Shown here: in pieces, positions 2,921 through 37,904 of the stretch
How positions within the stretch are numbered: the first letter of the stretch is position 1
How the letters are laid out: every line of letters begins with the position of its first letter
Assembly (NCBI GenBank): GCA_947600335.1
Contig: CANQGB010000007.1
Coordinates: 1 to 43,733 of the forward strand
DNA: 43,733 bases
Direction: 5' to 3'
Source: an uncultured Bacilli bacterium
Lineage (GTDB): Bacteria; Bacillota_I; Bacilli_A; RF39; UBA660
Notes under the pieces: generated by a model
Told to the model about the DNA's origin: nothing
Seen by the model: only the letters and a program-made list of their open reading frames with translations
Database searches by the model: none
Translations under genes and position numbers: made by a program

Positions 2921-3997
2921 AATGCTTAAAATAATACCCATCAGAATAAAATAAATAATCATATTTGAACCACCATAAGACAAAAAAGGTAAAGGAATTC
3001 CCATGATAGGTAGTAGTCCTAAATTCATGCCAATATTTTGAATTTGTTGAAAGATAAACATGATTAAAAAGCCATTGATTAAAGATTGATATGGGCTTTT
3101 TTTCAAATTAAACAACTTTTTTATAAAATAAATATCGAGTAATAAATAACAAAGCAAAATGACTAGGGAACCTCCAAAGCCCCAGATAGAAGTACCTAAA
3201 GTAAAAGCAAAATCTGTTGGAAATTCAGGAACATATAAAATATCTTTTTTAATGCCATGTCCCCATAAATAAGCATTTCCTAAACTAATTAAAGCATTGT
3301 TTAATTGCATACCACTACCATTTTTAAAATTAATTAATCTATCCATACGATAAAAGAAACTAGTTCCAATCAAATCGATTAATAAATCTTGCTTGTTAAA
3401 ATATAAATAACCAAACGAACCTAGTAAAATGATAATGAGCATTCCTAAAAGAATAAACCATCTTTTTTTAATATTAGAAAATAATAAAACACCTAGTAAA
3501 ATTCCTAAATATATTATAATTGCTCCCGTATCTGGTTCTAAAAAGACTAACAAAGAGGGAAGGAGCACAATTAATAAACTTTTTAACAAAAACAATCCTT
3601 CCTTCGTTTTAGTCCTTTTAAAATCTGTTGCGACTTTCGTTAAATATAATAGAATACTTACTTTAGCAAATTCACTAGGTTGAAAGTTAAAAAAATAAAA
3701 ATTAAACCAGGCTTTCGCTCCATTGATTTCTTCACCGACAAATAAAACTAAAATTAACAGAACTAGAGAAAATAAGTAAAAATAAAAACTGTAATTCAAT
3801 AAAAACCGAATTTTACTTTTTTGAATAATTACCATTAAAATATAACCTAATCCAAACCATAAAATTTGTTTAAATAAATGATAACTATAAATACTACTTA
3901 CAAACTTAGCTTGATACATGATAAAAAAACTACCAATCATTATAATTGTTAGGGGAATAAATAATAACAGATTTTCATTCTTTAAAATGTTCTTCAT
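2918..3997 (-). CDS. RodA/FtsW-type SEDS peptidoglycan polymerase
   Basis: A polytopic membrane protein of 359 residues from the preferred start MKNILKNEN; an upstream extension is possible but adds an unlikely N-terminus. About ten hydrophobic segments are visible. SEDS hallmarks are FQPSEFAK, LVFLEPDTGA, EFPTDFAF and the C-terminal NLGLLPIMGIPLPFLSYGGS. SEDS proteins polymerise glycan strands from lipid II with a partner class B PBP: RodA in elongation, FtsW in division, SpoVE in sporulation. The GLLPIMGIPLPF stretch looks closest to RodA, but the subtype cannot be fixed here because no partner PBP is adjacent. No clear ribosome binding site precedes the chosen start. Confidence 0.85.
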   Translation of the reverse strand: MKNILKNENLLLFIPLTIIMIGSFFIMYQAKFVSSIYSYHLFKQILWFGLGYILMVIIQKSKIRFLLNYSFYFYLFSLVLLILVLFVGEEINGAKAWFNFYFFNFQPSEFAKVSILLYLTKVATDFKRTKTKEGLFLLKSLLIVLLPSLLVFLEPDTGAIIIYLGILLGVLLFSNIKKRWFILLGMLIIILLGSFGYLYFNKQDLLIDLIGTSFFYRMDRLINFKNGSGMQLNNALISLGNAYLWGHGIKKDILYVPEFPTDFAFTLGTSIWGFGGSLVILLCYLLLDIYFIKKLFNLKKSPYQSLINGFLIMFIFQQIQNIGMNLGLLPIMGIPLPFLSYGGSNMIIYFILMGIILSI

Positions 3998-4054
3998 ATT
4001 CTTATTATGCAACAAAAATAAATAATAATCATAAAATATAACGAGGTGAACTAT

Positions 4055-4357
4055 ATGCACAAAGACCTACCCAAAGTTTATGCTGTACCTATTAATAAAA
4101 AGCTAAATAATAATGAAGAAACTTATTCTAGTTTAGAAAGAAAAACTATGCCCAAAGAAGAACATGTTATTTCCACTCGAGAAATAAATCAAATTTTTAA
4201 TGCCAAAGACCATGTCTATAAAAGTAAATTAGAAATAACTACTAAAACCGAAACTAAAATCTATGAAGTAGTGGGGTTGTCTCATGAATCTCTTCTTACT
4301 TTAGATGGTAAGTTAATTAAACTAGCTGATATTATAGAAATAAAAAAAGTGTCCTAA
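4055..4357 (+). CDS. Hypothetical protein, 100 residues
   Basis: An unrecognised soluble protein. I chose the ATG at 4055 (MHKDLPKVY) over an in-frame GTG at 4046 because AACGAGGTG sits at the right distance upstream. The C-terminal half (KLEITTKTETKIYEVVGLSHESLLTLDGKLIKLADIIEIKK) looks like a small beta-barrel, with spacing reminiscent of SH3-like folds. It is divergent from the SEDS gene, with under 60 bases between the starts, so the two promoters must overlap or lie very close. Confidence 0.7.
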   Translation: MHKDLPKVYAVPINKKLNNNEETYSSLERKTMPKEEHVISTREINQIFNAKDHVYKSKLEITTKTETKIYEVVGLSHESLLTLDGKLIKLADIIEIKKVS

Positions 4358-4768: not shown

Positions 4769-4798
4769 TTAATGAGAATACATGAAAGGGTGAATAAT

Positions 4799-5239
4799 AT
4801 GTGTAATGAAAATCAAAACCAAAATGAAACAAGTTGTATCGCAGAAATATTAAATGTAATATTAGTTCTTCAACAAAACGCTTGCCCAGAAAATTGTTTA
4901 GATTCTTGCGATAGACCAATGCTTGGCGGCGGACCTAATTGCTTAATATGTAATACTAGACCTATAATGCTTTATACTTGTTGTGGAAATGGAACTCCAT
5001 GGAGTATGCCAACAACTAAGGATTCAACAGCTACTTGTACAGAAGCAACAGCTACTTGCTCAAATGTATTTAGAGTTGAAAAAGTTGATGGTAATTGCTG
5101 TACTTGTCGAGTTTTAGCTGATAATCCAGACCCAACAAGCTTAAATCCATATATTGCAACGAATTCTTTCTTTACTATTAGTTTAAATTGTATATGTTGC
5201 ATTAGATGTTTAACTGATACTTTTGTCGAATGTGTTTAA
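4799..5239 (+). CDS. CotY/CotZ-like spore coat protein
   Basis: A 146-residue Cys-rich protein (17 Cys). Start chosen at 4799 (MCNENQNQ) because GAAAGGGTG precedes it; an upstream in-frame ATG at 4772 lacks a site. The N-terminal CIAEILNVILVLQQNACPENCLDSCDRP and the C-terminal FRVEKVDGNCCTCRVL...SFFTISLNCICCIRCLTDTFVE follow the order of the Bacillus CotY/CotZ/ExsY family, which builds cross-linked, Cys-rich outer coat or exosporium lattices. It is a single-gene unit with its own terminator and a possible mother-cell promoter. It suggests that the host forms spores or descends from spore formers. Confidence 0.8.
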   Translation: MCNENQNQNETSCIAEILNVILVLQQNACPENCLDSCDRPMLGGGPNCLICNTRPIMLYTCCGNGTPWSMPTTKDSTATCTEATATCSNVFRVEKVDGNCCTCRVLADNPDPTSLNPYIATNSFFTISLNCICCIRCLTDTFVECV

Positions 5240-9124: not shown

Positions 9125-10465
9125 ATGCTAATTGGATTTAAAGTTAAGAATTTTAGGTCATTTAATGACATGCAACATTTTTCAATGGTTGCTGGTAAAA
9201 CGAGAAATTTCTTAGATCATATAGCAAATATTAATAATTTGAAAATATTAAAATTTAGTTCGATATATGGTGCTAATGCCTCTGGAAAATCAAACCTAGT
9301 TTTAGCTATTGATTTAGGCAAAAAAATGCTACTTAATAATATTCAAGGTTTGTTTTCAAATCAATATTTTAGGATAAATGAAAAAAATAAAGAAATACCT
9401 TCTTATTTTGAATATGAAATTGCCAAAAATAATAAATTATATTCATATGGATTTGAAGTAAATATTAATAAGAAAGAAATAGTTTCAGAGTGGCTTATTG
9501 ATATGACCAAAAATAATCAATTTGTGATATTTGAAAGAGATGTTATTAAAAAAACTATTAAAACAGATTTAAAAATAAAAGATAAAACTGATTCAAATAG
9601 ATTCGACGTTTGTAAGAGTGATATATTAAATAATAACAAAATCTTTTTTCTTACAGAAATGACAAGAAGAATCCAAATGAATGATGTAAAAACTTCTTCT
9701 TTTATTGACTTTGAGAATGTTTTTGACTTTTTTCTAAATGATATGCAATTAGTATTGCCTAATCAAAATAGAGAAATTAAATTTAATTATTTTTCCCAAT
9801 TTAAAAGTGATATTAAACCTTTATTAAAAATGCTGGGGTTAGATATTGATGATTTATTAGAATGTGAATCTAATATGTCAGAAATTAAAGATAGACTTTC
9901 TCCATCTGAATATAATAGACTTACATCTGATATCAATCAATTAAGCAATAATGTGTCTAAATTTGATATAACTTTAAGAATTGAAAATTGTATATATACA
10001 ATAAGTAGCAATAATAAAGATGAAAATCTTAATGTAAAAGTTATAAAAATATTACATACTAATTCTAATACATATTTTGATACTTATGAAGAATCTGATG
10101 GAACACTTAGAATTTTAGAATTAATTGATATATTATTATCCAATAATAAAGTTTTTATTATTGATGAGATAGATAGAAGTTTGCATCCATCTCTCACAGT
10201 TAGATTTGTTAATTGCTTTTTAAACTTATTAAAAAATAGAAATATTCAATTAATAATTACAACACATGAATCTAGGTTATTGAGTTATAATGTTTTAAGA
10301 AGAGATGAAGTGTGGTTTTCGGAAAAGAGAAAAGATGGATCAACAAAATTATATTCATTAGAGCAATTTAAAGATGACGCTAGATTTGATCGAAAAATAG
10401 ATAAAGCATATTTAGATGGAAGATATGGTGCAGTTCCCATTTTTATAGATTTTCCAAATGCCTAA
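9125..10465 (+). CDS. AbiLi/RloA-like AAA ATPase (COG1106 type)
   Basis: 446 residues of the SMC/OLD-like ATPase type found in abortive-infection and RloAB pairs. The N-terminus LIGFKVKNFRSFNDMQHFSMVAG is typical. Walker A is GANASGKSN (49-57); the ABC-like signature is ESDGT (323-327); Walker B is FIIDEID (344-350), followed by LHPSLTVRF and an ITTHES switch. A central helical insertion lies between. It overlaps the RloB-like gene by 8 bases, the usual partner order. By family knowledge this suggests an anti-phage role: the ATPase senses or gates and the partner is the effector. AGAGGAGG precedes the ATG. Confidence 0.9.
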   Translation: MLIGFKVKNFRSFNDMQHFSMVAGKTRNFLDHIANINNLKILKFSSIYGANASGKSNLVLAIDLGKKMLLNNIQGLFSNQYFRINEKNKEIPSYFEYEIAKNNKLYSYGFEVNINKKEIVSEWLIDMTKNNQFVIFERDVIKKTIKTDLKIKDKTDSNRFDVCKSDILNNNKIFFLTEMTRRIQMNDVKTSSFIDFENVFDFFLNDMQLVLPNQNREIKFNYFSQFKSDIKPLLKMLGLDIDDLLECESNMSEIKDRLSPSEYNRLTSDINQLSNNVSKFDITLRIENCIYTISSNNKDENLNVKVIKILHTNSNTYFDTYEESDGTLRILELIDILLSNNKVFIIDEIDRSLHPSLTVRFVNCFLNLLKNRNIQLIITTHESRLLSYNVLRRDEVWFSEKRKDGSTKLYSLEQFKDDARFDRKIDKAYLDGRYGAVPIFIDFPNA

Positions 10466-10862
10466 GTATTTTTTAATATATGAAAGTGAAATAACTGAAC
10501 CAATGTATTTTAATGGTATTATAGTTAATAGAAAAAACAATAAATGCAGTGAAAACAATATTAAATTATATGTAAGTAATCCATGCTTTGAAGCATGGTT
10601 ATTAATGCATTTTGAAGAATTTGATAATTTAGATTTTGATAAGTTGTTAGAAAATAAACGAGTGAATTCAAACAAGAAATCAAGAAAATATTCCGATAAA
10701 ATGCTTTCTGAAATAATAGGCTATGATAAATCTAATTTGAATTTTGATATGTTTGTCAACAAGATTGATGATGCTATAAAACGCGAGAAAAATTATTGCG
10801 AAAATGTAGAAGAGCTTAAAGATAAAATTGGTTCCAATATTGGTAAAAATATGAGAAATTAG
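10458..10862 (+). CDS. Shortened RloB-like protein (AbiLii-type partner)
   Basis: 134 residues against roughly 200 or more in RloB proteins. The start (YFLIYESEITEPMYFNGII) matches the Toprim-like opening (EGExTEPxYF), and the middle (YVSNPCFEAWLLMHFEEFDN) is the RloB core. The section normally between them, which carries the acidic D-x-D strand, is absent in frame, joining VNRKNN to KCSENN. The C-terminal helical part (KIDDAIKREKN) is present. It is translationally coupled to the ATPase. The deletion removes expected catalytic acids, so this is either a remnant or a divergent form. Confidence 0.72.
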   Translation: MPKYFLIYESEITEPMYFNGIIVNRKNNKCSENNIKLYVSNPCFEAWLLMHFEEFDNLDFDKLLENKRVNSNKKSRKYSDKMLSEIIGYDKSNLNFDMFVNKIDDAIKREKNYCENVEELKDKIGSNIGKNMRN

Positions 10863-16584: not shown

Positions 16585-17424
16585 ATGGGAAATTTTTTAA
16601 CAACAATAAAAAGATTTTTAGGAAATAAAAATACTGTTACAATTATAGGTGTAATACTAGGAGTCATAGTTTTATACATCGGATACAATTACCGTGTTAA
16701 ACAAGCTACTACTCCAATTAGAGTGCCATATGCTAAAGAAAGTTTATCATCAAGAACATTAATAACTACTGATATGATTGGCTACATGGAAATATCTAGT
16801 AGTGTCGTTCAAAATAGTCCAAACTTAATTACTGATGTTGGTAAAATAGTTAATAATTATGTATCTTTTGGTACAACTATTCCAGCTAATAGTATGTTCT
16901 ATGATGGTATGATCTTAGCTAGTGATGAAATGCCAGATTCAGCTTTTGCTGATATCCCTGATGGTTATACAGTATACTCACTAGATGTAAACTTACATAC
17001 TACATATGGTAACTCAATGTATCCTGGTAACTATATTGATTTATACTTACATGGTACTGATGATACTGGTAAATTAATTTATGCTAAATTTATTGAAAGT
17101 ATTGAAATTGCCGCGGTTAAAGATGGACAAGGTCAACACGTATTCGAAACAACTATCGAAACAAGAACGCCATCTGAAATGCAATTTGCTGTACCAACTG
17201 ATATGTATGAATTATTAATGAAAGCTGAATACTTAGGATTAGAAATTGTTCCAGTTCCAAGAAATGCTTCATATAGTGCTAATCCAGGTGAAACATGGAT
17301 AACTAGTGATACATTACGTGACTTTATCTTATCTAAGAGTGCTACAATTCCACAAAATCAAATAAATCCAAATGCTAATAATAACAATAATACTAATACC
17401 AATACGAATAATGCCACAGAATAA
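16585..17424 (+). CDS. cpaB: Flp pilus assembly protein CpaB/RcpC-like (SAF domain)
   Basis: 279 residues with one N-terminal membrane segment (about 17-35) and a periplasm-side SAF/CpaB region: RVPYAKESLSSRTLITTDMIGYMEI followed by VSFGTTIPANSMFYDGMI, then an RcpC-like domain with YPGNYIDLYL. The C-terminal tail is Asn/Thr-rich. CpaB proteins assist Flp-type pilus assembly; in a monoderm cell the protein would lie on the outer face of the membrane. It is the first clearly Tad gene, directly before the ATPase. Confidence 0.88.
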   Translation: MGNFLTTIKRFLGNKNTVTIIGVILGVIVLYIGYNYRVKQATTPIRVPYAKESLSSRTLITTDMIGYMEISSSVVQNSPNLITDVGKIVNNYVSFGTTIPANSMFYDGMILASDEMPDSAFADIPDGYTVYSLDVNLHTTYGNSMYPGNYIDLYLHGTDDTGKLIYAKFIESIEIAAVKDGQGQHVFETTIETRTPSEMQFAVPTDMYELLMKAEYLGLEIVPVPRNASYSANPGETWITSDTLRDFILSKSATIPQNQINPNANNNNNTNTNTNNATE

Positions 17425-17447
17425 AAATTAAGAAAGGGGCTATTTAA

Positions 17448-18584
17448 ATGCAAGAAAAAGATGCTATCTTTTCCCAAATCGACTGGGGACCATTAGAAGA
17501 GTTTTTAAGATTAGATGATATAACCGATATTTCATATAGTAATGGTGGCCAAATATGGTTAAAGACTTTATCTAAAGGTGTGCAAAAAGTCGAACGGCCA
17601 GCGATTAACAATGCGCTGATGGAAAAAATTGCTTTCCAATGTGCCAATACTATGGGTAAAACATTTAACATGGCCCATCCATTCCTCGATGCTGAAAGCG
17701 TTGAATTACGTTTAAACTTTGTTCATGATTCTATTGCAACCAATGGTATTGCCGTTTTAATTCGGAAAACACCTGCTAAAATTCGTTTAAATCGAGAAAA
17801 GTTAATTAATGAAAAATACGTTTCCGAAGATTTACTAGATTTCTTAATTGAATGTGTCCATGGCCATGCCAACATAATCGTTGCTGGTGAAACTGGTTCA
17901 GGTAAAACCGAACTTGTTAAATACTTAGCTAGTAACACTAAAGAAGATGAAAAAATAATTACTATCGAAGATACCCTCGAACTTCATTTAGACCGTATCT
18001 TCCCTGGTCGAGATATCGTGGCCATGAAAACTAACAATATCGCATCTTATACTGAAGTACTAGTTACCTGCATGCGGCAAAACCCAATTTGGATATTATT
18101 ATCCGAAGTTCGTAGTGCTGAAGCTGTTTTAGCTGTTCGTAACTCAATATCTTCAGGTCACCATATCTTATCAACCATCCATGCTGATAAAGCTTCATCC
18201 ATTCCTATGCGGATGTACAGTTTGCTCGAATCGAATTTGGAAGTTGAACAATTTTTATCGACAATCCATCGGTATGTTCAAATTGGTATATATGTTAAAG
18301 GTTATTTAAGTCAAGAACTTGGTCGTTTCCAAAGAGAAATCATGGAAATATGCGAGTTTTACGTTGATGATGATAATAAACCTAAATCTAATATCATCTT
18401 TAAAAAGAGTATGGATGGTAAATTTACCTTACAAAATCCTACCAATCATTTACGGGATTACCTAGCTATTCAAGGAGTTATTCTAAAAGATAATATCTTT
18501 CGAACTGATGAAGCTCCAAAAGCCGTAAATCCAACTAATTCAATGCCATCAATGGCAATTCCTAAAAAAATAGAAACTATTTAA
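17448..18584 (+). CDS. cpaF: CpaF/TadA secretion ATPase
   Basis: 378 residues, a hexameric VirB11/GspE-superfamily ATPase that powers Tad pilus assembly at the inner face of the membrane. Walker A GETGSGKT is at 147-154; the Asp box IITIEDTLELHL at 170-181; the Walker B-like strand IWILLSEVR at 214-222; and the His box STIHAD at 242-247. The N-terminal domain starts LEEFLRLDDITDISYSNGGQIWL as in CpaF. AAAGGGG precedes ATG. Its presence beside VirB4 and VirD4 supplies the VirB11-type motor that Gram-positive T4SS normally lack. Confidence 0.95.
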   Translation: MQEKDAIFSQIDWGPLEEFLRLDDITDISYSNGGQIWLKTLSKGVQKVERPAINNALMEKIAFQCANTMGKTFNMAHPFLDAESVELRLNFVHDSIATNGIAVLIRKTPAKIRLNREKLINEKYVSEDLLDFLIECVHGHANIIVAGETGSGKTELVKYLASNTKEDEKIITIEDTLELHLDRIFPGRDIVAMKTNNIASYTEVLVTCMRQNPIWILLSEVRSAEAVLAVRNSISSGHHILSTIHADKASSIPMRMYSLLESNLEVEQFLSTIHRYVQIGIYVKGYLSQELGRFQREIMEICEFYVDDDNKPKSNIIFKKSMDGKFTLQNPTNHLRDYLAIQGVILKDNIFRTDEAPKAVNPTNSMPSMAIPKKIETI

Positions 18585-26276: not shown

Positions 26277-28505
26277 ATGTTTTCGACAATAGGAAAAGTT
26301 TTTGAAAATGGTGTAACTGGTTTATTTATGCTAATTGATAGTTTAGTTTACTGGTTCTTAAGTCTAGTTTTTGAATTATTTAGTTCACTAGCTGAAGCTA
26401 AAATATTTACCCAAGATGCTTATCGAAAAATAACAGATAGATTCTATGTCGTTATTGGAGTTGTTATGCTATTTTTCCTGGCATATTCCTTACTAAAAGC
26501 TTTAGTTAACCCTGAAGAATTACAAAAAGCAACCAATAAAATAGCAACCAATGCCATAGTCGCTCTTATAATGTTAAGTTTAGCTCCAACTGTCTTTAAT
26601 TACATGTTTGAATTACAATCAGCCATTGTCGGAGATAATATTGTTGGTAAGTTAGTTTTTGGCGATACTTATGCTGAGAATAAATTACCATCTATTGGAC
26701 GAAAAATGGCTGTAACTATGCTTGAAGCCTTTATCCAGATTGATGATAGTGTCGAAGGCAACAATGGCAGCACCTGGCAAGAGACTAAAAGTGATATTAT
26801 AAATGGTGGTAGTTTTAGTTTAATTACAAACTTTGTTGAAGCAGTTAATGAAGGTGAAAGAGGAGCGTCTTATACCCCAATAATTGGTGCCATAATGGGT
26901 GGATTTATAATTTATGTTGCTTTATCTTTTTGCTTAGATTTAGGTATTCGATTATTTAAATTGGCTTTTTATCAAATCATGGCCCCAATACCTATAATGA
27001 TGCAAGTTATCCCTGAAAAAAAATCGGTATTTGGTAACTATGTCAAAAAAACATTGATGACTTTTATGGAAGTATTTGTTCGTTTATTTATTATGTATGC
27101 TATCTCCTTTTTTGTCAGCATAATCACTGATGGAAATTTACAGTTGATGTCTGATGAAAATTTAAACTTAGTAGCTAAAATAGTTATATTCTTAGGCTTA
27201 TTTGCCTTTGCTAAACAAGCTCCTAAACTTATTAGTGATATTACCGGATTAGATTCTGGAAATATCAAACTTGGCATTGGCGGAAAGATTAAAGAAAGCT
27301 TTAATGCGATGGGTAGTATTCCCATTGTTGGTGGTTTAAGTAAAAGAGTAGGTGGCGCGGTAACTGGTGGTTTAGGCGGAGCATATGCTAGTTTAACGAA
27401 TGGTGCGGGTTTATCTGGTATCGGTTATGGTGTCCTAAACGGTTGGAAAGGTAAAGGTAATCAATTTGGTCGCCAACGAAACGATATGTATCATCGAGTT
27501 TATGGTCAAGATGGTGAGCAAGGAATATTTGGCGGACCTTCAATGCGGTATTTAATGGCCAATGAAGCTAAAGCCAAAGCTAAAAAGGCTTATCAAAATA
27601 ATATGGAAAGAAATGTAGAAAATGACCCAAGATGGCAAACAACATATAATGTTCAAGAATCAGCAGCAAGAGATGCTAAAATAGAATCTGTTAACAATAT
27701 TTCTAATCAAATTAATAAAGTTAATGAAGATTTAAAAAAGGCATTTGATGAATTTAAAGAAAATCAAGAAAAAGAACGAGCTACTTTACAAGCTTTATTA
27801 GATAATGAAAAGGCTGAATATGAAAATGATAAAGTTGCTAGATTAAAGCAATTAAAAAATGAAGCTCGGAAATATGAAAAACCACAAAGTAAAGAAGAAA
27901 TAATTGCTGCTAATCGCGTTAATCGCGAAATTGCTGATTTAGAAAATTCAACTTATGAAAATTATAGAAATACTAAATTAAAACAATTAAAAGAAGCGGC
28001 TTTAAAATATGAGAATCCTCAAACCAAAGAAGAGTCAATCGAGGCTATCCGTATTAATCAAGAAATTGCTAATTTAGAGAATTCTATATCTTCACATACT
28101 GCATTAGAAAATAAAATTACTGAAGTAAATAATCGAACATTTGATGATAGTAGCTTTAAAACTGAATTAGAATCCTTAAATAACCAATTAGCCACTGCTC
28201 AAGCTAGTCTTCGTTCAGGCTTTACTGATGAAGAAATTGCTTCTATTCAAGCGGCAACTAGAAAAGCTCTATTAAAAGATAACTCACTTGGTCTAAAATA
28301 TAAAGCAATGGTTAAATATACAGATAATGTTGCTCGTGAAAAAGAAAACAAAAAATATTTGGAATCTGATGAAGGTCGACATATGGCGGCAGCTTATCAA
28401 CAAGCTATGGAAGCTATAAATAAAAACAAACCACCTATGGGTGGAGGAAAACCTCCTTTAGGCGGAGGAGACAAACCACCTTTGGGTGGTAATAAGCCAA
28501 AATAA
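26277..28505 (+). CDS. VirB6/TrbL-like polytopic channel protein
   Basis: 742 residues. The first ~345 hold about six or more membrane segments (around 15-45, 58-80, 88-110, 200-225, 255-285, 300-320) of the VirB6/TrbL type, including KLAFYQIMAPIPIMMQV. A Gly-rich stretch then leads to a long charged helical region (about 445-690), probably coiled coil, and a tail of PPxGGGKPP repeats. In T4SS this protein forms the inner-membrane channel core; large cytoplasmic helical tails are common in Gram-positive forms. AGAAAGGAG precedes the ATG. Confidence 0.82.
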   Translation: MFSTIGKVFENGVTGLFMLIDSLVYWFLSLVFELFSSLAEAKIFTQDAYRKITDRFYVVIGVVMLFFLAYSLLKALVNPEELQKATNKIATNAIVALIMLSLAPTVFNYMFELQSAIVGDNIVGKLVFGDTYAENKLPSIGRKMAVTMLEAFIQIDDSVEGNNGSTWQETKSDIINGGSFSLITNFVEAVNEGERGASYTPIIGAIMGGFIIYVALSFCLDLGIRLFKLAFYQIMAPIPIMMQVIPEKKSVFGNYVKKTLMTFMEVFVRLFIMYAISFFVSIITDGNLQLMSDENLNLVAKIVIFLGLFAFAKQAPKLISDITGLDSGNIKLGIGGKIKESFNAMGSIPIVGGLSKRVGGAVTGGLGGAYASLTNGAGLSGIGYGVLNGWKGKGNQFGRQRNDMYHRVYGQDGEQGIFGGPSMRYLMANEAKAKAKKAYQNNMERNVENDPRWQTTYNVQESAARDAKIESVNNISNQINKVNEDLKKAFDEFKENQEKERATLQALLDNEKAEYENDKVARLKQLKNEARKYEKPQSKEEIIAANRVNREIADLENSTYENYRNTKLKQLKEAALKYENPQTKEESIEAIRINQEIANLENSISSHTALENKITEVNNRTFDDSSFKTELESLNNQLATAQASLRSGFTDEEIASIQAATRKALLKDNSLGLKYKAMVKYTDNVAREKENKKYLESDEGRHMAAAYQQAMEAINKNKPPMGGGKPPLGGGDKPPLGGNKPK

Positions 28506-28523: not shown

Positions 28524-28835
28524 ATGAATAATTATTTAATTCCCGCTAATTCAAAAAAATCAATGTTAATCTTAGGCTTTTTTACTCCCATTGATTTAAT
28601 AATATTTGGTTTAGGGTGTACATTTACATTAGTAATGTTATTTATGTTTAATTCCAAAGTCGAACTAAGTGCCATGCTTTTATTTCTGGCTCCGGCTTTA
28701 GTAACAGGTTTCTTAGTCATGCCTGTTCCGTATTATCATAATATCCTGCAATTATTAACGAATGTAGTTACCTTTATCTTTGGACGAAAAAGATTTTATT
28801 GGAGAGGTTGGTGTGTAAATAATGGCGAAGAATAA
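28524..28835 (+). CDS. PrgI/VirB3-like small membrane protein
   Basis: 103 residues with two or three hydrophobic segments (about 17-40, 45-65, 78-88) and a C-terminal FGRKRFYWRGW typical of PrgI-family proteins that lie directly before VirB4 in Gram-positive T4SS. Its last 14 bases overlap the next gene, so the two are co-translated. VirB3-type proteins anchor the VirB4 ATPase at the membrane. Confidence 0.83.
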   Translation: MNNYLIPANSKKSMLILGFFTPIDLIIFGLGCTFTLVMLFMFNSKVELSAMLLFLAPALVTGFLVMPVPYYHNILQLLTNVVTFIFGRKRFYWRGWCVNNGEE

Positions 28836-29376
28836 AATAAGTAAATATACTGAAGATTGGGTTCCAATCAAACAAATCATGAATGGTATGATTCAGTTAG
28901 ATAGTGGCGAATATGTTACGGGCGTCAAAATAGCTCCACGAAATATCTTCATGCTTGAGCAATCAATGCAAGATAATATAATTTATAACTTACGTAATTT
29001 TTACAATACGATAAACTATGAATTTTGGTTAATAGTGGCTGATAGACCGGTAGATATAAACGTATACTTATCGCAATTACAAATTCTTTACAATAATGCT
29101 CCAAGTAATACGATGCGTAAATTAATTCGCCAAGATATCAACAAAGCCAATATGTTTATGTCAGCTGAATACAACGTTGTCGATACCGAATATTATATCT
29201 TATTTAAAGAACGTAAAATGGAAATAATTCAAAAAAAATTGCACAACATTATCAGTAATCTATCAACCTGTGGTCTTAATTCCACCCAAGTATCCAATAA
29301 CGACTTACGAATGATTATTGACAATTTCTTTAATGGCGGAAATGCCACAACATTAGGAACGGTGATGCCATCATGA
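28822..29376 (+). CDS. virB4: VirB4 N-terminal domain as a separate protein
   Basis: 184 residues corresponding to the first part of VirB4/TraE-type proteins: DWVPIKQIMNGMIQLDSGEYVTGVKIAPRNIF followed by YNLRNFYNTINYEFWLIVADRPVDINVYLSQL. It has no ATPase motifs. The gene ends ATGA, overlapping the start of the ATPase part by 4 bases. The clean overlap and separate start suggest an evolved split with coupled translation rather than an accidental frameshift. Confidence 0.82.
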   Translation: MAKNKISKYTEDWVPIKQIMNGMIQLDSGEYVTGVKIAPRNIFMLEQSMQDNIIYNLRNFYNTINYEFWLIVADRPVDINVYLSQLQILYNNAPSNTMRKLIRQDINKANMFMSAEYNVVDTEYYILFKERKMEIIQKKLHNIISNLSTCGLNSTQVSNNDLRMIIDNFFNGGNATTLGTVMPS

Positions 29377-31160
29377 ATAATATAAAAAGTCAATTAGCCC
29401 CTAAAGGGATAGAATTTAAACCCATGGAATTTGTTATCAGTGGTAAATACTGTACTATTTTTACCATTGTATCTTTTCCTAAATACATCTCTCAAGGTTA
29501 CTTAGCTAACTTAACTAATATTAGTGGTGTCAAATTAGCCATTAAACACATTCCTATCGAATTTTCTACTTTACAAAAAATGCTTAATAAAGAAATAGCG
29601 GATTTAAAAGATAGATATCAAAAAGAAAATGATAAAACCTTCCAAGAAAGAATTCGCCAAGACTATGAATCTCTAGAACAATTTATTCAAATGTTAGCGG
29701 CAACCCAAGCGCGAATCTTCGATTTCCAAATGCATTTATTTATCTCGGCTGATAATAAAGAAGAATTAGAACTTAAAAAGATGCAAGTTCGTAATTACTT
29801 AGATAGTTTAGGTATGAGAGGTATCCCTTTAATGTTTGAACAAGAAAAAGTTCTTAAATCTATAATTCCAATTTTCCCTAAACAAGATGTAGAAAATAGA
29901 GTAGGAACTCCGATTCCATCAGTTACCGTGGCGGCTATGTATCCATTTGTCTTTGATAGCATTAAAGACCCTGGAAATAGTACCCTTTTAGGTGTTGATT
30001 TCTCTGGTGGTGTCGTTTTATTTAATCAATTCTTATATAAAATCAAAAAAGAAAATAACCGTAATAATGCCAATATTATTATTTTAGGTACCAGTGGTAG
30101 TGGTAAATCAACAGCGGCCAAATTATTAATTCGAAGTCATCTGCGGAACGGTAGCAAAGTCGTATGTATTGACCCTGAAGGTGAACTTGCTGATATGACC
30201 GCAACAATTGGTGGCGATTTCCTTGACTTAGGTAAAGGTGGCGATTTCGGGATGGTCAACCCCTTAGAAATCGTTGTTGATGCCGATGAAGAAGAAATAG
30301 AACAAGGCCTAGGTTATACAGTTTTAACCAGAACTCTTCAACAATTAAAAGCTTTCATGAAATATTACTCACCATCAATTGAAGAAGATGTTTTAACCAT
30401 GTTTAGTGAAGTAGTTCAAGATACTTATAAACGTTATAAAATAGATTATGATAGTGATTTCACCAAATTTACAGCTGGTGATTACCCAACCTTTGATGAT
30501 GTATATGCAACCATTAAAGGTCGGCTATTATCCATGCCTGATAAAACGCATGAAAAAGATGTTATGGAACGCTTGGAATTAAAGGTTCGACCATTAGTTA
30601 AAGAACTTCGTTACTATTTTACTGGTCATACTACTTTAAGTATCGATAGTGATTTCATTGTCTTTAATATTAAAGAACTGATGAACAGTGATGAAAACAT
30701 CAAAAATGCCTTATTCTTTAATATCTTAAAATATGCTTGGGGCTTATGCTTAGATAAAAACATCGAAACTGTTATGTGTGTCGATGAAGCGCATGTTCTG
30801 ATGTCTAGTAAAAATGAACTTGGCGCCGAATTCTTAGCCCAAATTCAAAGACGAAGTCGGAAGTACAATACCGGTACCATAATTATTACGCAACAACCAA
30901 CTGATTTTGCTGCTCCTAATATAATAGTTCATGGTAAAGCTATTTTTGACAATGCTTCATATTACTTAATCATGGGCTTAAGAAAACAAGCTGTTGAAGA
31001 CTTAGCGCGTTTAATCGACTTAAATGATAATGAAAAAGAAAGCATAAAGTATTATAATCAAGGAGAAGCCTTATTTGTCTGTGGCAATCGCCGAATGCGT
31101 ATTAACGTTATAGTAACGCAAGAAGAACTAGACTCCTTTGGGACTGGCGGAGGTTTATAA
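29373..31160 (+). CDS. virB4: VirB4 ATPase part
   Basis: 595 residues containing the remainder of VirB4. A linker domain (1-200) is followed by the P-loop ATPase: Walker A GTSGSGKST (239-247), VVCIDPEGELADM, Walker B VMCVDEAHVL (467-476), then RRSRKYNTGTIIITQQPTDF. VirB4 energises pilus biogenesis and substrate transfer and is the most conserved T4SS component. It is translated through a 4-base overlap with the N-terminal half. With VirD4 and CpaF, it makes three distinct motor ATPases in one locus. Confidence 0.93.
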   Translation: MNNIKSQLAPKGIEFKPMEFVISGKYCTIFTIVSFPKYISQGYLANLTNISGVKLAIKHIPIEFSTLQKMLNKEIADLKDRYQKENDKTFQERIRQDYESLEQFIQMLAATQARIFDFQMHLFISADNKEELELKKMQVRNYLDSLGMRGIPLMFEQEKVLKSIIPIFPKQDVENRVGTPIPSVTVAAMYPFVFDSIKDPGNSTLLGVDFSGGVVLFNQFLYKIKKENNRNNANIIILGTSGSGKSTAAKLLIRSHLRNGSKVVCIDPEGELADMTATIGGDFLDLGKGGDFGMVNPLEIVVDADEEEIEQGLGYTVLTRTLQQLKAFMKYYSPSIEEDVLTMFSEVVQDTYKRYKIDYDSDFTKFTAGDYPTFDDVYATIKGRLLSMPDKTHEKDVMERLELKVRPLVKELRYYFTGHTTLSIDSDFIVFNIKELMNSDENIKNALFFNILKYAWGLCLDKNIETVMCVDEAHVLMSSKNELGAEFLAQIQRRSRKYNTGTIIITQQPTDFAAPNIIVHGKAIFDNASYYLIMGLRKQAVEDLARLIDLNDNEKESIKYYNQGEALFVCGNRRMRINVIVTQEELDSFGTGGGL

Positions 31161-31178: not shown

Positions 31179-33224
31179 ATGTATAATGAAGAAGAAAATC
31201 CAATTGAAAATGATGACCAAGAATTAACTAATTCTTCTTCTAATCAAACTTTAAATGAAGAACCGGATTCTATGGAACCGGATTTTTCAGATGCTACCGA
31301 AAACCCAAATAGTGGTTCAGAGCTTAAAAAACTTATGGATCACTTTTTCCCATTTACTAAAAATATCAAAATTATTTTCTTTGTTCTAATAGGTTTAGTA
31401 ATTATCATTATGCTCATTGCTTTAGTAATAATGGACTATGATTTAGCGGGAACTAGATTTCATCCTCAATATGTAAAACAATATGATTTTAAATGTAGTT
31501 CTATTTATTTAACAAGAGAAAAAGAATCTTATATCGAAGAAAAGAAAGAAAAAGGGGAGTATACTCCCGTAACTAATCCTGAACAAGTAGACTTATCTGA
31601 TGAAGAGCGTTATGAATATGAAGAAATTGATCTAAATAGTTTTATAGCTGGTATTGCTTGGAAAGAGAATAACGATGCTCAAGATGTTAATAATGAATTA
31701 GTATATCAAGCTTTAGCCATAATTACTCGTTCTAAAATTGTCGTAACGATGAGTAGTAACTGTGTTGTTTTAGAAGACTATAATCCTTATAATTATCATA
31801 AACTTAAAGGTGATGAAGAAAAGTATTATGAAATAATTAATGCTGTTAATAATAGTCAAGGTCTTATTATTACCAAAGATGATAAACCATTTGATCCTAA
31901 ATTTGATAAATTTACTTATGTACGCAAAAGAGAACAATCAGAAGCCGCCGGTCGTTATTTTATCTATTACATGCGTTATATCAATCAAGAAAATTATCAA
32001 CAACAAATTCCTGCCGATTGGGTTAAAGAAAATGTTCCATTGCTATTACGAAATTGGGAACCTTTAACTGCTAAATTAGAATATTTTAGTTTGTATGGAG
32101 CTAAATATCTTGCGGAAAAAGAAGGTATTGATTATACTGTCTATCGTTTACTTGAATACTATTATGGTAAAGATATAGGATATTTAACGATATCGGGATT
32201 ATCAGTCTTAAATCCTAGTCAATTAGGTTTTGTTGGATCAACTAGTGGTTGTATGTGGTGGCCAGTCGGTAGTACCGCCACGACTTCAGAAAATGGTGTT
32301 CAATTTGCTGCAGGCAGTCCTAGTGCCACCCATATTACTAGTACTTTTGGTTGGCGAAATGCTCCAACAGCGGGAGCAAGCGATAATCACCCAGCTATTG
32401 ATATAGGTGGTGGAGGTGTTCGTCACAACATAATCGCGGCTGCCAGTGGAACAGTTATTCAAGTTAACACTGGATGTACTGAAGGTAACGCTACTTGTGG
32501 TGGACGCTTAGGAAATTATGTTAAAATTCAACATGAAGATGGTACTATTACACGTTATGGCCATTTATATAGTGTAAATGTTAGCAATGGTCAAACTGTT
32601 GCTCAAGGCCAAGTTATTGGTATTATGGGAACAACAGGTACTTCAACCGGAATCCATTTAGATTTTCAAATTTTAGTTAATGGTAGTCCCGTAAATCCTC
32701 TAAACTATGTTAGTGCTAGCAATCCGCGAAACAATTGTAGTGCAAGTCTTGGAGGCGGTGGCTCTATCGAAATAGGTGGCAATAATCAACAAACAATCTG
32801 TTTAAGTTTAAAATCGAATGGCTTTACACCTAATATGATTGGTGGAGTAATGGCTAATATTAAATCTGAAAGTAATTTTAATCCAACGGCTATAAATAAA
32901 AGTTCTGGAGCAAGCGGTATATGTCAATGGTTAGGAGGTCGTAAGAAAAATTTACAATCTACTTATGGAGCTAATTGGACTAAACTCGAAAACCAAATAG
33001 AATTCTTATTCTTTGAATTAAATGGTTCTGAAAGTTCTACTCTTAAAGTTTTAAATAACAATTCCAATAATAGTCCCGAAGATTTAACCGATAAATTCTG
33101 CTACTATTTTGAAAGACCGGGAGTAAATGCCGAAGAAAAAAGAAAAGTATGTAATGCTAGGGCTAGCAACTATGGAACAGCCGCTAATCAATTAGCCAAT
33201 TATGCTAAAAATAACTGTAGTTAG
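31179..33224 (+). CDS. SpoIID-like / M23 / lysozyme wall-hydrolase fusion
   Basis: 681 residues: acidic cytoplasmic tail, one membrane segment (63-85), then three outward wall-active regions. Residues ~150-260 resemble SpoIID/LytB (IDLNSFIAGIAWKENND...LVYQALAIITRSKIVV, Glu163 as candidate acid). Residues ~385-510 are an M23 peptidase with H404-x3-D408 and YGH462, but the HLH motif reads H493-L-D495, replacing a zinc ligand. Residues ~535-680 match the phage tail lysozyme type (IKSESNFNPTAINKSSGASGICQWLGGRKKNL, candidate Glu564). T4SS use such enzymes to open peptidoglycan (VirB1/Orf14 role). The gene follows VirB4 in the usual place. Confidence 0.88.
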   Translation: MYNEEENPIENDDQELTNSSSNQTLNEEPDSMEPDFSDATENPNSGSELKKLMDHFFPFTKNIKIIFFVLIGLVIIIMLIALVIMDYDLAGTRFHPQYVKQYDFKCSSIYLTREKESYIEEKKEKGEYTPVTNPEQVDLSDEERYEYEEIDLNSFIAGIAWKENNDAQDVNNELVYQALAIITRSKIVVTMSSNCVVLEDYNPYNYHKLKGDEEKYYEIINAVNNSQGLIITKDDKPFDPKFDKFTYVRKREQSEAAGRYFIYYMRYINQENYQQQIPADWVKENVPLLLRNWEPLTAKLEYFSLYGAKYLAEKEGIDYTVYRLLEYYYGKDIGYLTISGLSVLNPSQLGFVGSTSGCMWWPVGSTATTSENGVQFAAGSPSATHITSTFGWRNAPTAGASDNHPAIDIGGGGVRHNIIAAASGTVIQVNTGCTEGNATCGGRLGNYVKIQHEDGTITRYGHLYSVNVSNGQTVAQGQVIGIMGTTGTSTGIHLDFQILVNGSPVNPLNYVSASNPRNNCSASLGGGGSIEIGGNNQQTICLSLKSNGFTPNMIGGVMANIKSESNFNPTAINKSSGASGICQWLGGRKKNLQSTYGANWTKLENQIEFLFFELNGSESSTLKVLNNNSNNSPEDLTDKFCYYFERPGVNAEEKRKVCNARASNYGTAANQLANYAKNNCS

Positions 33225-33235
33225 GAGGCTCAAAT

Positions 33236-34111
33236 ATGAGTAATGATAATAAAATTAAACTAGGTATTGTTGCAATATTCCTTATTGTAGTTATTCTAAT
33301 ATTCTTTATCTTTATTAATTTTAATAATAAAAAAGTTCCTTCTAATTCAGATCATTATAATATGTCAGAAGTTACCGAATATAGTATGTTTTTTGCCGTT
33401 GTTAATAATATAAATAATTATTTATTCTATAATTATTCTAAAGATGCTGATGCTATTCTTGCCAATTTACATCCTACATATATTTCCCAAAATAATTTAA
33501 ATCGCAATAATATTTTAGCTAATATTCCCAGTTTTAGTGACAGCCCAACTTATCAAGCCAAAAATATGTATTATCAAGAAAATGGAGACATTTATACCTT
33601 TTATGTTATTGGGGATATTTTAATAAATAATTATGAAGACACTACTATTTTTAAAGAAAATCAAAAATATTTATTAATTGTTGATTATAATACTTTTGGC
33701 ATTCAAATATATCCTTTAAATGATTCCGATAATTTAACGACATTGCCATTTGATGTTTCTAATATTTCAATAACTAAAAATAATTACAATGAATTCAAAA
33801 GTTCTAAGTTAATTACTGACAACTATATCTGTAATCTATATTATGCTCAATTTTATAGTTTACTCCTAAACGACTTAGACAAATCTTATAATCTTTTAAA
33901 AGATGAAACTAAAAATAGATATCCCAATCTAACTGAATATCGTCAATACTTTAAAGATAATATCGAAAAAATTAGTCCTCAAATAACTAATTGTGAGTCG
34001 ACAACTAGAAATAGTAAAAGAATTTATACTATCACAGATGCTTTAAATAATAGTTTTACTTTTGAAGAAACAAGTATTATGAATTATCAAGTTAATTTTA
34101 AATTAAAATAA
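33236..34111 (+). CDS. Possible VirB8-like membrane protein
   Basis: 291 residues with one N-terminal membrane segment (about 8-28) and an extracytoplasmic remainder. Two stretches, DADAILANLHPTYISQNNL and YYAQFYSLLLNDLDKSYNLLKDETKNRYPNLTEYRQYFKDN, look like the helical openings of two NTF2-like domains, as in the TcpC/VirB8 type of Gram-positive conjugation proteins. The position after the wall hydrolase fits. The sequence match is weak, so the assignment is inference from topology, fold pattern and context. Confidence 0.55.
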   Translation: MSNDNKIKLGIVAIFLIVVILIFFIFINFNNKKVPSNSDHYNMSEVTEYSMFFAVVNNINNYLFYNYSKDADAILANLHPTYISQNNLNRNNILANIPSFSDSPTYQAKNMYYQENGDIYTFYVIGDILINNYEDTTIFKENQKYLLIVDYNTFGIQIYPLNDSDNLTTLPFDVSNISITKNNYNEFKSSKLITDNYICNLYYAQFYSLLLNDLDKSYNLLKDETKNRYPNLTEYRQYFKDNIEKISPQITNCESTTRNSKRIYTITDALNNSFTFEETSIMNYQVNFKLK

Positions 34112-34159: not shown

Positions 34160-35437
34160 TTAAGGTTTTAAAGCCGTGATAGGTAAGACATATATATTAG
34201 TATCTTCATATTTCATAACCGCACTAGAATTACCAGTAATTATACACATAAATTTTGGCTTTTTTGTCATGCTATCATAAAACTTTAATAAATTATTTTT
34301 CGCCTCATTTACTGAATTATAACTTAATTTTATTTCAACTGCCGCATATTCTCCATTAGCGAACTCTAAAATAGAGTCAACCTCTAAACCAGTAACACTA
34401 TCTCTAAAATGATATAAATGCCCATCTAAGTATTCGATATAAATCCGCAAATCTCTCTCAACTAAAGCTTCAAAAATAAAACCAAATGTTTTTAAATCAT
34501 CTAATAATTTATCTACAGTCATATTAAGCATTGCACAAGCGAGTGATGGGTCAATCAAATGTCTTTTAGGAGCTTTTCCAATTCTCTTTGGTGAGCGATA
34601 ATTTATACTATATGCTTCTTGATTTTCAATAAGATGTAATCTATTTAAAACATTTAAATAATCTATTAAAGTAGCTCTTCCTTTAATAATTTCCTCTTGG
34701 TAATCATTGTCTTCACCAATATCATTAATCAGAGTTTGATTACTTACAATTGTTGATTCATTTCGAGCCAAAGAATGCAAAAGCATTTTCATTTTATTTT
34801 TATCTCTATTTTTATCATCATTTATATCTTTATCTAAAATAGATTCAATGTAACTTTTCGGAATTAAATTACAATTATTAACATCCACTTTTAAATTACT
34901 TGGCCAGCCACCTCTTAAACAGTAATAGGCTAACTCATGAATATCAGGAATTGTAACATTTACATTTTTTTGGCAATTATTAAACATATCCATTAAAGAA
35001 GCTTCACCAGTAGATTCTCCGGATTCATATAAAGACATCGGATACATTTTTAATTTTCCAATCCGACCAGCACCCGAATGAAATAATTTTTTACTTTTAT
35101 CATCGTTTAAAGATGTCGAGCAAGTTAAAATATATTTGCCTTTACTAGCATCTTCATCACATTTTCTTCGAACTTTATCCCATATTTGGGGAATTAAATG
35201 CCATTCATCAATTAACTCTGGCATCTCTTCATTTAAGATTAACTCTAAATCTAATAAACCTTTTTCTTTTGTTTCTTCATCATCTAAATAAACTGCACTT
35301 TTAGCATGTTTAGAAGAAGTCCAAGTTTTGCCACACCATTTAGGGCCTTCAACAGATATCGCCCCAAAAACTTTTAAATAATCATCAACTTTTTTATCGA
35401 TTAAGCGGGGTAAATAGTCCTTTTCATTAAAATTCAT
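34160..35437 (-). CDS. AAA_14/DUF4143 ATP-binding protein
   Basis: 425 residues, the usual length of this family. Walker A is GPKWCGKTW (about 31-39), followed by KSAVYLDDEE; the Walker B-like strand is ELIDEWHLIP; ILTCSTSLN is the sensor strand. A C-terminal restriction-nuclease-like DUF4143 part has FEALVERDLRIYIEYLDGHLYHFRDSVTGLEVDSIL and AAVEIKLS, a PD-(D/E)xK-like pattern. The cellular role of the family is not settled. It is the only minus-strand gene within the pilus/secretion locus and separates virD4 from the rest, so it looks like an insertion. Confidence 0.9.
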   Translation of the reverse strand: MNFNEKDYLPRLIDKKVDDYLKVFGAISVEGPKWCGKTWTSSKHAKSAVYLDDEETKEKGLLDLELILNEEMPELIDEWHLIPQIWDKVRRKCDEDASKGKYILTCSTSLNDDKSKKLFHSGAGRIGKLKMYPMSLYESGESTGEASLMDMFNNCQKNVNVTIPDIHELAYYCLRGGWPSNLKVDVNNCNLIPKSYIESILDKDINDDKNRDKNKMKMLLHSLARNESTIVSNQTLINDIGEDNDYQEEIIKGRATLIDYLNVLNRLHLIENQEAYSINYRSPKRIGKAPKRHLIDPSLACAMLNMTVDKLLDDLKTFGFIFEALVERDLRIYIEYLDGHLYHFRDSVTGLEVDSILEFANGEYAAVEIKLSYNSVNEAKNNLLKFYDSMTKKPKFMCIITGNSSAVMKYEDTNIYVLPITALKP

Positions 35438-35585: not shown

Positions 35586-35614
35586 TTGCAAATTGAATAT
35601 TTTTATAGTATAAT
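35586..35614 (+). promoter_or_regulatory. Promoter of virD4
   Basis: TTGCAA (35586-35591), 17-base spacer, TATAAT (35609-35614), 29 bases before the chosen ATG. It would make virD4 independent of the upstream run. Confidence 0.7.
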
Positions 35615-35642
35615 TAATTTGATTTTGAACGGAGGAAATTAT

Positions 35643-37904
35643 ATGAAATTTCGCGTGTCCCCAAAAGATTTTTTAATTTTTATTATATTTTGTATATTTT
35701 TAATTTACCTTTGTGCTATTGCTGTTTTAAATTTTACTTCATTTATGAATGAAGGTGAGTTTTTTGGACTTAATCCTTTTCCCGCTTTTGTAGGCAAAAA
35801 TATTATATTAACTTTAGGCATGTTTTTGGCGATGATGATTATAATTTTTTCTTCTGTTACTTCTTATATTTTTGACCGTGAAAAAGGTAAAGGCATAGGT
35901 CTTACTTTTAATGAAAAAGAAGAAAAAGGTTACTCAAGATGGAGTAAAGATAAAGAAATTAAAGAAGACAAAAATGTTGCCCATGTTTTAGCTACAGATA
36001 AAAAAGTGGAAGCCGCGGGAATTCCTTTAATTAATAATGGCAAAGATATCTGGGTTGATAATGGCGAATACCATACTTTAGTTGTTGGTTCTTCTGGTTC
36101 AGGTAAAACCGAAACAATTGTTAAACCGATGGTTAACTTACTAGCCAAAAAAGGCGAAAGTATGATAATTACTGACCCCAAAGGGGAAATCTACGAATAC
36201 AGTGGCCAATATTTAAAAGAACAAGGTTATAAAATAATTATCCTAAATTTCCGGGACCCTCAAAATGGTAATGCTTGGAACCCCTTAACTTTACCTTATA
36301 AGTATTATAAAAATAAAGATGTCGATAAAGCTACCGAACTTTTAGACGATGTGGCCTTAAATATTATCTATGACCCCAATAACAAAGGTGAACCTTTCTG
36401 GGAAAAAAGTGCGGCCGATTATTTTTCAGGTTTAGCCCTAGGTTTGTTTATCGATGGTAAAGAAGAAGAAGTGAATTTAAATTCCATTAACTACATGAGT
36501 ACTGTCGGTGAAGAACGAATTGGCATGAATACTTATTTAAAAGAATATTTTCTTCTTAAAGGTGAATCTTCAAGTCCTTACATCTTTGCTTCAAATACTA
36601 TCAATGCCCCTAATGATACTAAAGGTGGTATAACCTCAACATTTAGACAAAAAATTCGGCTTTTTTCATCACGCGAAATGTTAAGTGAAATGTTATCTTA
36701 TAGTGATTTTGATATTCGGACCATTGGTAAAGAGAAAACAGCTGTCTTTATGATAATTCATGATGAAAAGACCACTTACCATAGTTTATTAACCATCTTT
36801 GTAAAACAATGCTACGAAACCCTAATCGATGTAGCTAAAGAAAGTGGGGGAAAACTCCCAATTCGAACTAACTTCATTTTAGATGAATTTGCGAACATGC
36901 CTCCTTTAAAAGATGTTGACTCAATGGTTTCAGCGGCCCGTAGTCGGGATATTCGTTTTACCTTTATCATTCAAAACTTTGCTCAATTAAATGATGTATA
37001 CGGTAAAGAAGTTGCCGAAGTAATTAAAGGTAACTGTGGTAATTTAATTTACTTAATCAGTACTGAAATGGCGGCCTTAGAAGAAATTAGTAAAATGTGT
37101 GGGGAAGTCAAATCTAAAGAAAAAGATAAGACCGCATCGACTCCTTTAATAACTGTAACTGATTTACAAAAGTTAAAACTATTTCAAGCCATTATCTTAC
37201 GTTTAAGAAAATATCCGTTTAAGACTAAACTTACCCCGGATTTTGAAATGGACTGGGGCATAAAAAGAGAAAAAGCCACTTTACCAGTTAGAGAAGCTCA
37301 TCCAATTGCTCTTTTCGATATCAAAAAATATGTTTCCGAAGAAAAGAAAAAACAAACTTTAAGCAATCTCGAAAATGGTCAAAATAATCCTTTATCAAAC
37401 CCATTTGGCCCTAATCCTTTTGCTACTCCTTTTGGACCTAATCCAACCAATAATCCGTTTAATAATATGCCACCAGCACCTCCAATGGGTAATCCAATGA
37501 ATCCTTTAGGCAATAATCCATTTGGCAAATCTGGACCGCTTACTAATGAAGAAATCGACCGTATGATAGCGGACATTGACAAAAAATTAAAAGAACTAGA
37601 TGAAGAAGAGGCTAGGGAAAAAGAAAAACAACAAGCCGAGAATTCCAAGAATCCAGCTCCAACCCCAGCACCTAATAAACCATTAGAAAGTATTACTAAA
37701 CCTATTATGCCAGTTAAACCTTCAACTGAGAAACCTAAAATGGAGCCTAAAAAAATTAACAATACCAAAAAAATTGAAAAAGTCGAAAAAATGGATGAAA
37801 TTCCTGATAAACCTAAAATCAATATCGATGTTGACAGTGTTATTGTTAACGATAACATTATTTCTGATGATGAATTCTTTGATGATTTTTTTACAGACGA
37901 TTAG
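35643..37904 (+). CDS. virD4: VirD4/TraG-type coupling ATPase
   Basis: 753 residues from the ATG at 35643, chosen because CGGAGG sits just upstream and an earlier ATG-like start falls within the promoter. Two N-terminal membrane segments (about 9-31, 54-76) are followed by the coupling-protein ATPase: Walker A GSSGSGKT (149-156), ITDPKGE (176-182), Walker B FILDEFANMPP (411-421). The tail has Asn/Pro-rich repeats (NPFGPNP-like), a charged helix and an acidic end. VirD4 proteins recruit substrates to T4SS. The long repetitive tail may be the substrate-recognition part. Confidence 0.94.
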   Translation: MKFRVSPKDFLIFIIFCIFLIYLCAIAVLNFTSFMNEGEFFGLNPFPAFVGKNIILTLGMFLAMMIIIFSSVTSYIFDREKGKGIGLTFNEKEEKGYSRWSKDKEIKEDKNVAHVLATDKKVEAAGIPLINNGKDIWVDNGEYHTLVVGSSGSGKTETIVKPMVNLLAKKGESMIITDPKGEIYEYSGQYLKEQGYKIIILNFRDPQNGNAWNPLTLPYKYYKNKDVDKATELLDDVALNIIYDPNNKGEPFWEKSAADYFSGLALGLFIDGKEEEVNLNSINYMSTVGEERIGMNTYLKEYFLLKGESSSPYIFASNTINAPNDTKGGITSTFRQKIRLFSSREMLSEMLSYSDFDIRTIGKEKTAVFMIIHDEKTTYHSLLTIFVKQCYETLIDVAKESGGKLPIRTNFILDEFANMPPLKDVDSMVSAARSRDIRFTFIIQNFAQLNDVYGKEVAEVIKGNCGNLIYLISTEMAALEEISKMCGEVKSKEKDKTASTPLITVTDLQKLKLFQAIILRLRKYPFKTKLTPDFEMDWGIKREKATLPVREAHPIALFDIKKYVSEEKKKQTLSNLENGQNNPLSNPFGPNPFATPFGPNPTNNPFNNMPPAPPMGNPMNPLGNNPFGKSGPLTNEEIDRMIADIDKKLKELDEEEAREKEKQQAENSKNPAPTPAPNKPLESITKPIMPVKPSTEKPKMEPKKINNTKKIEKVEKMDEIPDKPKINIDVDSVIVNDNIISDDEFFDDFFTDD

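What the first reader, a model, noticed from the sequence alone, without database searches (positions are those of the whole stretch)
31179..33224. Three wall-active domains in one T4SS protein, with an altered M23 site
SpoIID-like, M23 and phage-tail-lysozyme-like regions follow one membrane anchor. Gram-positive T4SS hydrolases usually pair two domains; the SpoIID-like part recalls the sporulation engulfment transglycosylase. In the M23 domain, HLH is HLD (Asp495 for a zinc ligand), so this domain may bind rather than cut stem peptides.
Basis: partly seen in the sequence, partly recalled or inferred. Interest (0 to 1): 0.62.

Follow-up and report, generated by a model that had tools for sequence, protein, structure and literature searches.

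The report
T4SS wall-opening protein with SpoIID domain
A membrane protein next to a chromosomal DNA/protein-transfer machine in uncultured gut bacteria carries a spore-type wall-cutting domain plus two further wall-cutting domains, and in its relatives the outer cutting domains are swapped as a block together with the gene behind them.

Summary
The 681-aa ORF (31179-33224) has one TM helix, a SpoIID-like domain (about residues 105-340), an M23 domain with HLD instead of HLH, and a phi29-gp13-type lysozyme domain. PF08486 misses the window protein. A profile of 18 genus relatives, however, hits only SpoIID structures in the PDB (E 5e-7 to 1e-4), the predicted fold matches only SpoIID and SleC, and same-position genes in other genera pass PF08486's cut-off. 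The catalytic-Glu position is E163, kept here but Asp in 16 of 18 genus members. HLD is real, not a sequencing slip: 6 of 8 genus M23 copies plus one other genus. H404, D408, H462 and H493 are kept in all seven, so 'binds rather than cuts' is not supported; Asp as third zinc ligand is likelier. PrgK of pCF10 already has three domains with a degenerate LytM. New here: a SpoIID domain as the commonest domain of the wall enzyme of a chromosomal T4SS (VirB4 in 99 of 117 genera), and distal M23, C39 or NlpC modules exchanging between close relatives together with the downstream gene (17/17 concordant in the genus), here a VirB8-like tandem NTF2 protein. Enzyme activities and T4SS substrate are untested.

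The parts
31179..33224 (+). 681-aa T4SS-associated wall protein (VirB1-like slot): TM + SpoIID-like + M23 + phage-tail-lysozyme domains
   Evidence: slot between split VirB4 and VirD4 conserved in the family
31362..31433 (+). transmembrane helix (residues about 62-85)
   Evidence: sequence; helix position conserved in relatives
31491..32198 (+). SpoIID-like domain, residues about 105-340
31665..31667 (+). Glu163, aligns with the catalytic Glu of SpoIID (E101 in C. difficile SpoIID)
   Evidence: alignments; role of E101 from PMC6221140
32328..32714 (+). M23 peptidase domain, residues about 384-512, HxxxD + HLD
32655..32663 (+). H493-L494-D495: HLD in place of HLH
32784..33146 (+). Phage_lysozyme2 (phi29 gp13 lysozyme-like) domain, residues 536-656, Glu564 aligned with gp13 Glu45
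33236..34111 (+). partner gene: TM + tandem NTF2-like domains, VirB8/OrfG-like; co-varies with the distal hydrolase module
28822..29376 (+). N-terminal part of a split VirB4
   Evidence: same two-ORF arrangement in all 68 loci examined
29373..31160 (+). VirB4-like ATPase, C-terminal part
35586..37904 (+). VirD4-like coupling protein (CD1115 family)
26277..28505 (+). VirB6-like transmembrane conjugal transfer protein (sub-cut-off match to MMCAP2_0566 family)

Best explanation
This is the membrane-anchored wall-opening protein of a chromosomal T4SS, in the same position and role as VirB1/PrgK/TraG. The TM helix holds it at the membrane. A SpoIID-type glycan-cleaving domain sits next to the membrane, followed by an M23 endopeptidase-type domain that probably uses Asp495 as third zinc ligand, and a gp13-type lysozyme domain. 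Together they locally open peptidoglycan so the T4SS channel or pilus can pass. The VirB8-like protein encoded just downstream probably docks this enzyme to the channel, as PrgL is thought to do for PrgK. Shown: domain identities, conserved locus position, key-residue conservation, exchange of distal modules together with the downstream gene. Inferred: catalytic activities, zinc binding by D495, physical contact with the partner, and what the T4SS transports.
For: Domains. Slot between split VirB4 and VirD4. PF08486 in 34 of 59 slot proteins from other genera, the most frequent domain there, followed by M23, CHAP, C39 and NlpC. Catalytic Glu kept in 35 of 38 SpoIID-bearing slot proteins of other genera and in the window. 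M23 residues H404, D408, H462, H493 kept in all HLD copies. Partner model pLDDT 88.7; best PDB hits are VirB8-like OrfG of ICESt3 (prob 0.90-0.97, E 2e-4 to 7e-4). PrgK binds the VirB8-like PrgL 1:1 (PMC11323569). Host has peptidoglycan synthesis genes: five transpeptidase genes and FtsW/RodA at 2918-4060.
Against: The catalytic Glu of the SpoIID domain is Asp in 16 of 18 genus members, so the domain may be inactive or structural there. C. difficile SpoIID needs SpoIIP to strip stem peptides first (PMC6221140), and no amidase domain is present in this protein. The genome has no PF03432 or PF02486 relaxase and only one Mob_Pre gene outside the locus, so 'conjugation' is not established. Foldseek TM-scores are low for both models. 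About 20 of 59 slot proteins in other genera have no detectable SpoIID domain.
Confidence: 0.72

Rival explanations
1. Only the lysozyme domain cuts. The SpoIID and HLD-M23 domains are inactive and bind or position peptidoglycan or regulate the lysozyme, as LytM and CHAP do in PrgK.
For: PrgK precedent (PMC11323569); E-to-D at the SpoIID catalytic position in 16 of 18 genus members; loss of the canonical third zinc His in 6 of 8.
Against: The window itself keeps E163; all four other M23 active-site residues are invariant in the HLD copies, and HLD arose twice, unlike decaying pseudoenzymes.
Confidence: 0.25
2. The distal hydrolase modules are antibacterial warheads of a contact-dependent killing system, and the downstream gene is an immunity gene.
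For: Module and downstream gene are exchanged together between near-identical backgrounds, the pattern of polymorphic toxin/immunity cassettes.
Against: The protein keeps a TM anchor and sits in the VirB1 slot; the window's partner has a VirB8-like fold, which points to docking.
Confidence: 0.15
3. The region 105-340 is not SpoIID but a TcpC-like domain, as the weak PF21497 hit suggests.
For: PF21497 at 255-317, E 0.0015, below its cut-off.
Against: Profile and fold searches give only SpoIID/SleC; orthologs pass PF08486; a separate VirB8-like protein is encoded next door.
Confidence: 0.03

Closest known systems
PrgK of Enterococcus faecalis pCF10 (VirB1-like, DELTA class)
   Same: One TM helix and three extracellular wall-active domains including M23/LytM with an altered site; VirB8-like partner (PrgL) encoded in the same system.
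   Different: PrgK has LytM-SLT(muramidase)-CHAP and no SpoIID; its LytM lost both zinc motifs. Here the order is SpoIID-M23-lysozyme and only one zinc ligand is changed, His to Asp.
SpoIID (sporulation lytic transglycosylase) and SleC
   Same: Fold, catalytic-Glu region, conserved Arg after it, C-terminal S-x-YGA...YYYG motif.
   Different: In a T4SS operon, fused to M23 and lysozyme domains; most genus relatives have Asp at the Glu position.
phi29 gp13 tail-knob protein
   Same: Lysozyme domain of the same family (3csr) together with an M23-type endopeptidase.
   Different: Order reversed; membrane-anchored bacterial protein, not a virion part.
T4SS wall enzymes of Patescibacteria
   Same: Chromosomal T4SS; VirB1 homologues with extra domains such as M23, and in S. 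epibionticum peptidase and lysozyme genes just downstream of virB4 (PMC12102498).
   Different: SpoIID is not mentioned there; different lineage.

Membership tests
SpoIID family (PF08486 fold) | Passes the curated Pfam cut-off | tested here: not met
   Window protein: no hit. Genus member L010 just below cut-off. Orthologs in other genera above it.
SpoIID family (PF08486 fold) | Homology to solved SpoIID by profile and by fold | tested here: met
SpoIID family (PF08486 fold) | Catalytic glutamate | tested here: met
   E163 in the window; Asp in 16 of 18 genus members
SpoIID family (PF08486 fold) | Lytic transglycosylase activity | not testable with these tools
   needs enzyme assay
M23 peptidase | PF01551 above cut-off | tested here: met
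   83.2 bits, cut-off 28.7
M23 peptidase | HxxxD + HxH zinc site | tested here: not met
   HxxxD and first His of HxH present; last His is Asp495
Phage_lysozyme2 (gp13-type lysozyme) | PF18013 above cut-off and catalytic Glu | tested here: met
   102.5 bits; Glu564 aligned with gp13 Glu45
VirB1/PrgK-type T4SS wall enzyme | Membrane-anchored multidomain wall hydrolase encoded with VirB4 and VirD4 | tested here: met
VirB1/PrgK-type T4SS wall enzyme | SLT or muramidase plus CHAP/NlpC domains | tested here: not met
   Neither CHAP nor NlpC in the window; gp13-type lysozyme instead of SLT
VirB1/PrgK-type T4SS wall enzyme | Needed for T4SS-mediated transfer | not testable with these tools
   uncultured host; needs genetics

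The most novel reading that the evidence does not exclude
A conserved chromosomal T4SS of an uncultured gut lineage carries a cassette-exchange wall drill: a fixed TM-SpoIID base, and distal hydrolase modules (M23+lysozyme, M23+glucosaminidase, C39, NlpC/CHAP) exchanged as one unit with a matching docking or immunity protein, tuning the machine to the walls of different partner or rival cells.
Probability: 0.35. Interest if true: 0.78.

Novelty: new variant of a known kind. Interest (0 to 1): 0.6.

Why it matters
Wall crossing is a poorly understood step of Gram-positive T4SSs. Here a sporulation enzyme fold appears as a common part of the wall enzyme of a T4SS kept by nearly a whole bacterial family. 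The exchange of distal modules with a matching downstream gene gives a natural experiment on which part fits the recipient wall and which part fits the channel. The HLD site asks whether M23 enzymes can work with a His-Asp-Asp zinc site.

Tried and rejected
Close relatives in viral contigs: none for the SpoIID-like domain. Plasmids: only M23-level matches for the whole protein and one weak unrelated hit for the SpoIID domain, so no plasmid/ICE carrier was found. TcpC-like_C match considered and rejected. Sequencing error as cause of HLD rejected: six genus genomes and one other genus carry it. The DNA-pattern census is a lower bound only: it missed the HLD of L160, whose spacing differs. Literature: no paper with SpoIID + conjugative + type IV secretion + peptidoglycan hydrolase in the held library; two holding both SpoIID and VirB4, a Thermus genome and a proteomics paper by title (not read); a mention of SpoIID-like domains in polyvalent proteins of phages and conjugative elements (PMC5512222), which are a different kind of protein. 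One alignment call failed on wrong coordinates and was redone.

Full report
Check of the observation. The ORF at 31179-33224 encodes 681 aa with a short acidic cytoplasmic part, one TM helix and a large outer part. Pfam gives M23 at 404-507 and Phage_lysozyme2 at 536-656, both far above cut-off, and no SpoIID. The lysozyme part matches phi29 gp13 (Morphogenesis protein 1) and Glu564 aligns with gp13 Glu45.

The SpoIID question. It does not. Eighteen relatives of the same genus share the TM and the following 250 residues. Their profile hits exactly three PDB sequences at E below 1e-3, all SpoIID (5i1t, 5txu, 4rwr), and matches host SpoIID by profile-profile comparison (E 3.5e-6). The predicted structure of residues 91-346 finds SpoIID and the SpoIID-like SleC and nothing else credible. 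In other genera the gene at the same place passes the PF08486 cut-off. The domain runs from about 105 to 340. E163 aligns with the catalytic Glu (E101 of C. difficile SpoIID, needed for activity, PMC6221140). It is Glu in 35 of 38 SpoIID-bearing proteins of other genera and in the window and L002, but Asp in the other 16 genus members.

The M23 site. M23 zinc is held by the His and Asp of HxxxD and one His of HxH (PMC8269130); from my knowledge of LytM and lysostaphin it is the second. Here that residue is Asp495. The HLD form is present in six of the eight M23-bearing genus members, forming one group, and once more in another genus (L160), two changes on the tree. Branch supports in that tree are moderate. 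H404, D408, H462 and H493 are kept in all seven. Of 24 M23-bearing slot proteins from other genera, one has HLD. A DNA-pattern census found the HLD form only in the window's genome among 117 genera, and the HLH form in 65 of them. This looks like a ligand replacement under constraint rather than decay; Asp is a common zinc ligand in other metallopeptidases (general knowledge). Activity is untested.

The setting. The gene lies directly after a VirB4 that is split into two ORFs (about 185 and 595 aa) and before VirD4. The same split was seen in all 68 loci inspected. The VirB4 is found in 99 of 117 genera of the family, usually once per genome and mostly 65-84% identical, and RmuC and VTT-domain genes flank the locus in several genera, so the system looks like an inherited chromosomal locus rather than a plasmid or ICE. 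Named relatives are rabbit- and mouse-gut 'uncultured Bacilli/Tenericutes' MAGs, as far as their titles tell; I suspect the RF39 lineage but did not test it. The host makes a wall. No relaxase of two families was found and one Mob_Pre gene lies elsewhere, so the substrate is unknown.

Module exchange. In 59 slot proteins of other genera Pfam finds SpoIID in 34, M23 in 23, CHAP in 9, C39 in 7, NlpC in 7, Phage_lysozyme2 in 4. My own profiles, which are looser, find the SpoIID domain in 38 of the slot proteins of other genera and in all 18 of the genus. Within the genus the distal modules do not follow the SpoIID-domain tree: well-supported sister pairs L003/L017 and L005/L013 differ in module. 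For L005/L013 (fetched also as L028/L025) VirB4 is 99% identical, TM+SpoIID 68%, VirD4 86%, while the distal part and the next gene show no credible similarity. The next gene is of one type with M23 (8/8), another with C39 (7/7) and a third with NlpC (2/2) in the genus. Over 58 module/partner pairs from other genera, the second type occurs with C39 17 of 17 times and the first with M23 10 of 10. The Fisher values there ignore shared ancestry and are not probabilities of independent events; the within-genus pairs are the stronger evidence.

The partner in the window. 33236-34111 is predicted with good confidence (pLDDT 88.7) as a TM helix plus two NTF2-like domains, best matched by VirB8-like OrfG of ICESt3. 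In pCF10 the VirB8-like PrgL binds PrgK 1:1 (PMC11323569). The simplest reading is that hydrolase and docking protein change together. The third partner type resembles LppM-domain proteins weakly; the second type is unassigned, so immunity remains possible for those.

Comparison. Three outer domains with a degenerate LytM is known from PrgK (PMC11323569; PMC12857230). SpoIID-like domains are known in some polyvalent proteins of phages and conjugative elements (PMC5512222). A SpoIID domain in the wall enzyme of a T4SS, and the module/partner exchange, I did not find in the held library, which lacks most subscription journals.

Noticed in passing
window 28822-31160 and loci L057-L064, L112-L171: VirB4 is encoded as two ORFs (about 185 + 595 aa) in all 68 loci inspected; a rarer unsplit VirB4 of about 790 aa, 32-42% identical, occurs in a few of the same genomes.
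   Followed up: partly
window 16585-18584: T2SSE-type ATPase and an RcpC/CpaB-like protein, Tad-pilus-like genes, lie upstream of the T4SS genes on the same strand.
   Followed up: no
window 34160-35437 (-): An AAA_14/DUF4143 ATPase gene on the opposite strand sits between the VirB8-like gene and VirD4; in the genus relatives inspected the two are nearly adjacent.
   Followed up: no
L028 versus L025 and other genus pairs: VirB4 is 92-99% identical between relatives whose VirB6-like protein is only 44-50% identical, suggesting fast change of membrane/outer parts.
   Followed up: partly
L125, L126, L155, L164, L169: Two hydrolase/partner pairs lie in tandem, and the VirB8-like partner is split into two smaller genes there.
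   Followed up: partly
window 9125-10862: AAA_21 (AbiEii-like) ATPase next to an RloB-like gene, a possible defence pair.
   Followed up: no
window 4772-5239; G000:C43: CotZ-like spore coat gene in the window and a true SpoIID elsewhere in the genome: the host may sporulate.
   Followed up: no
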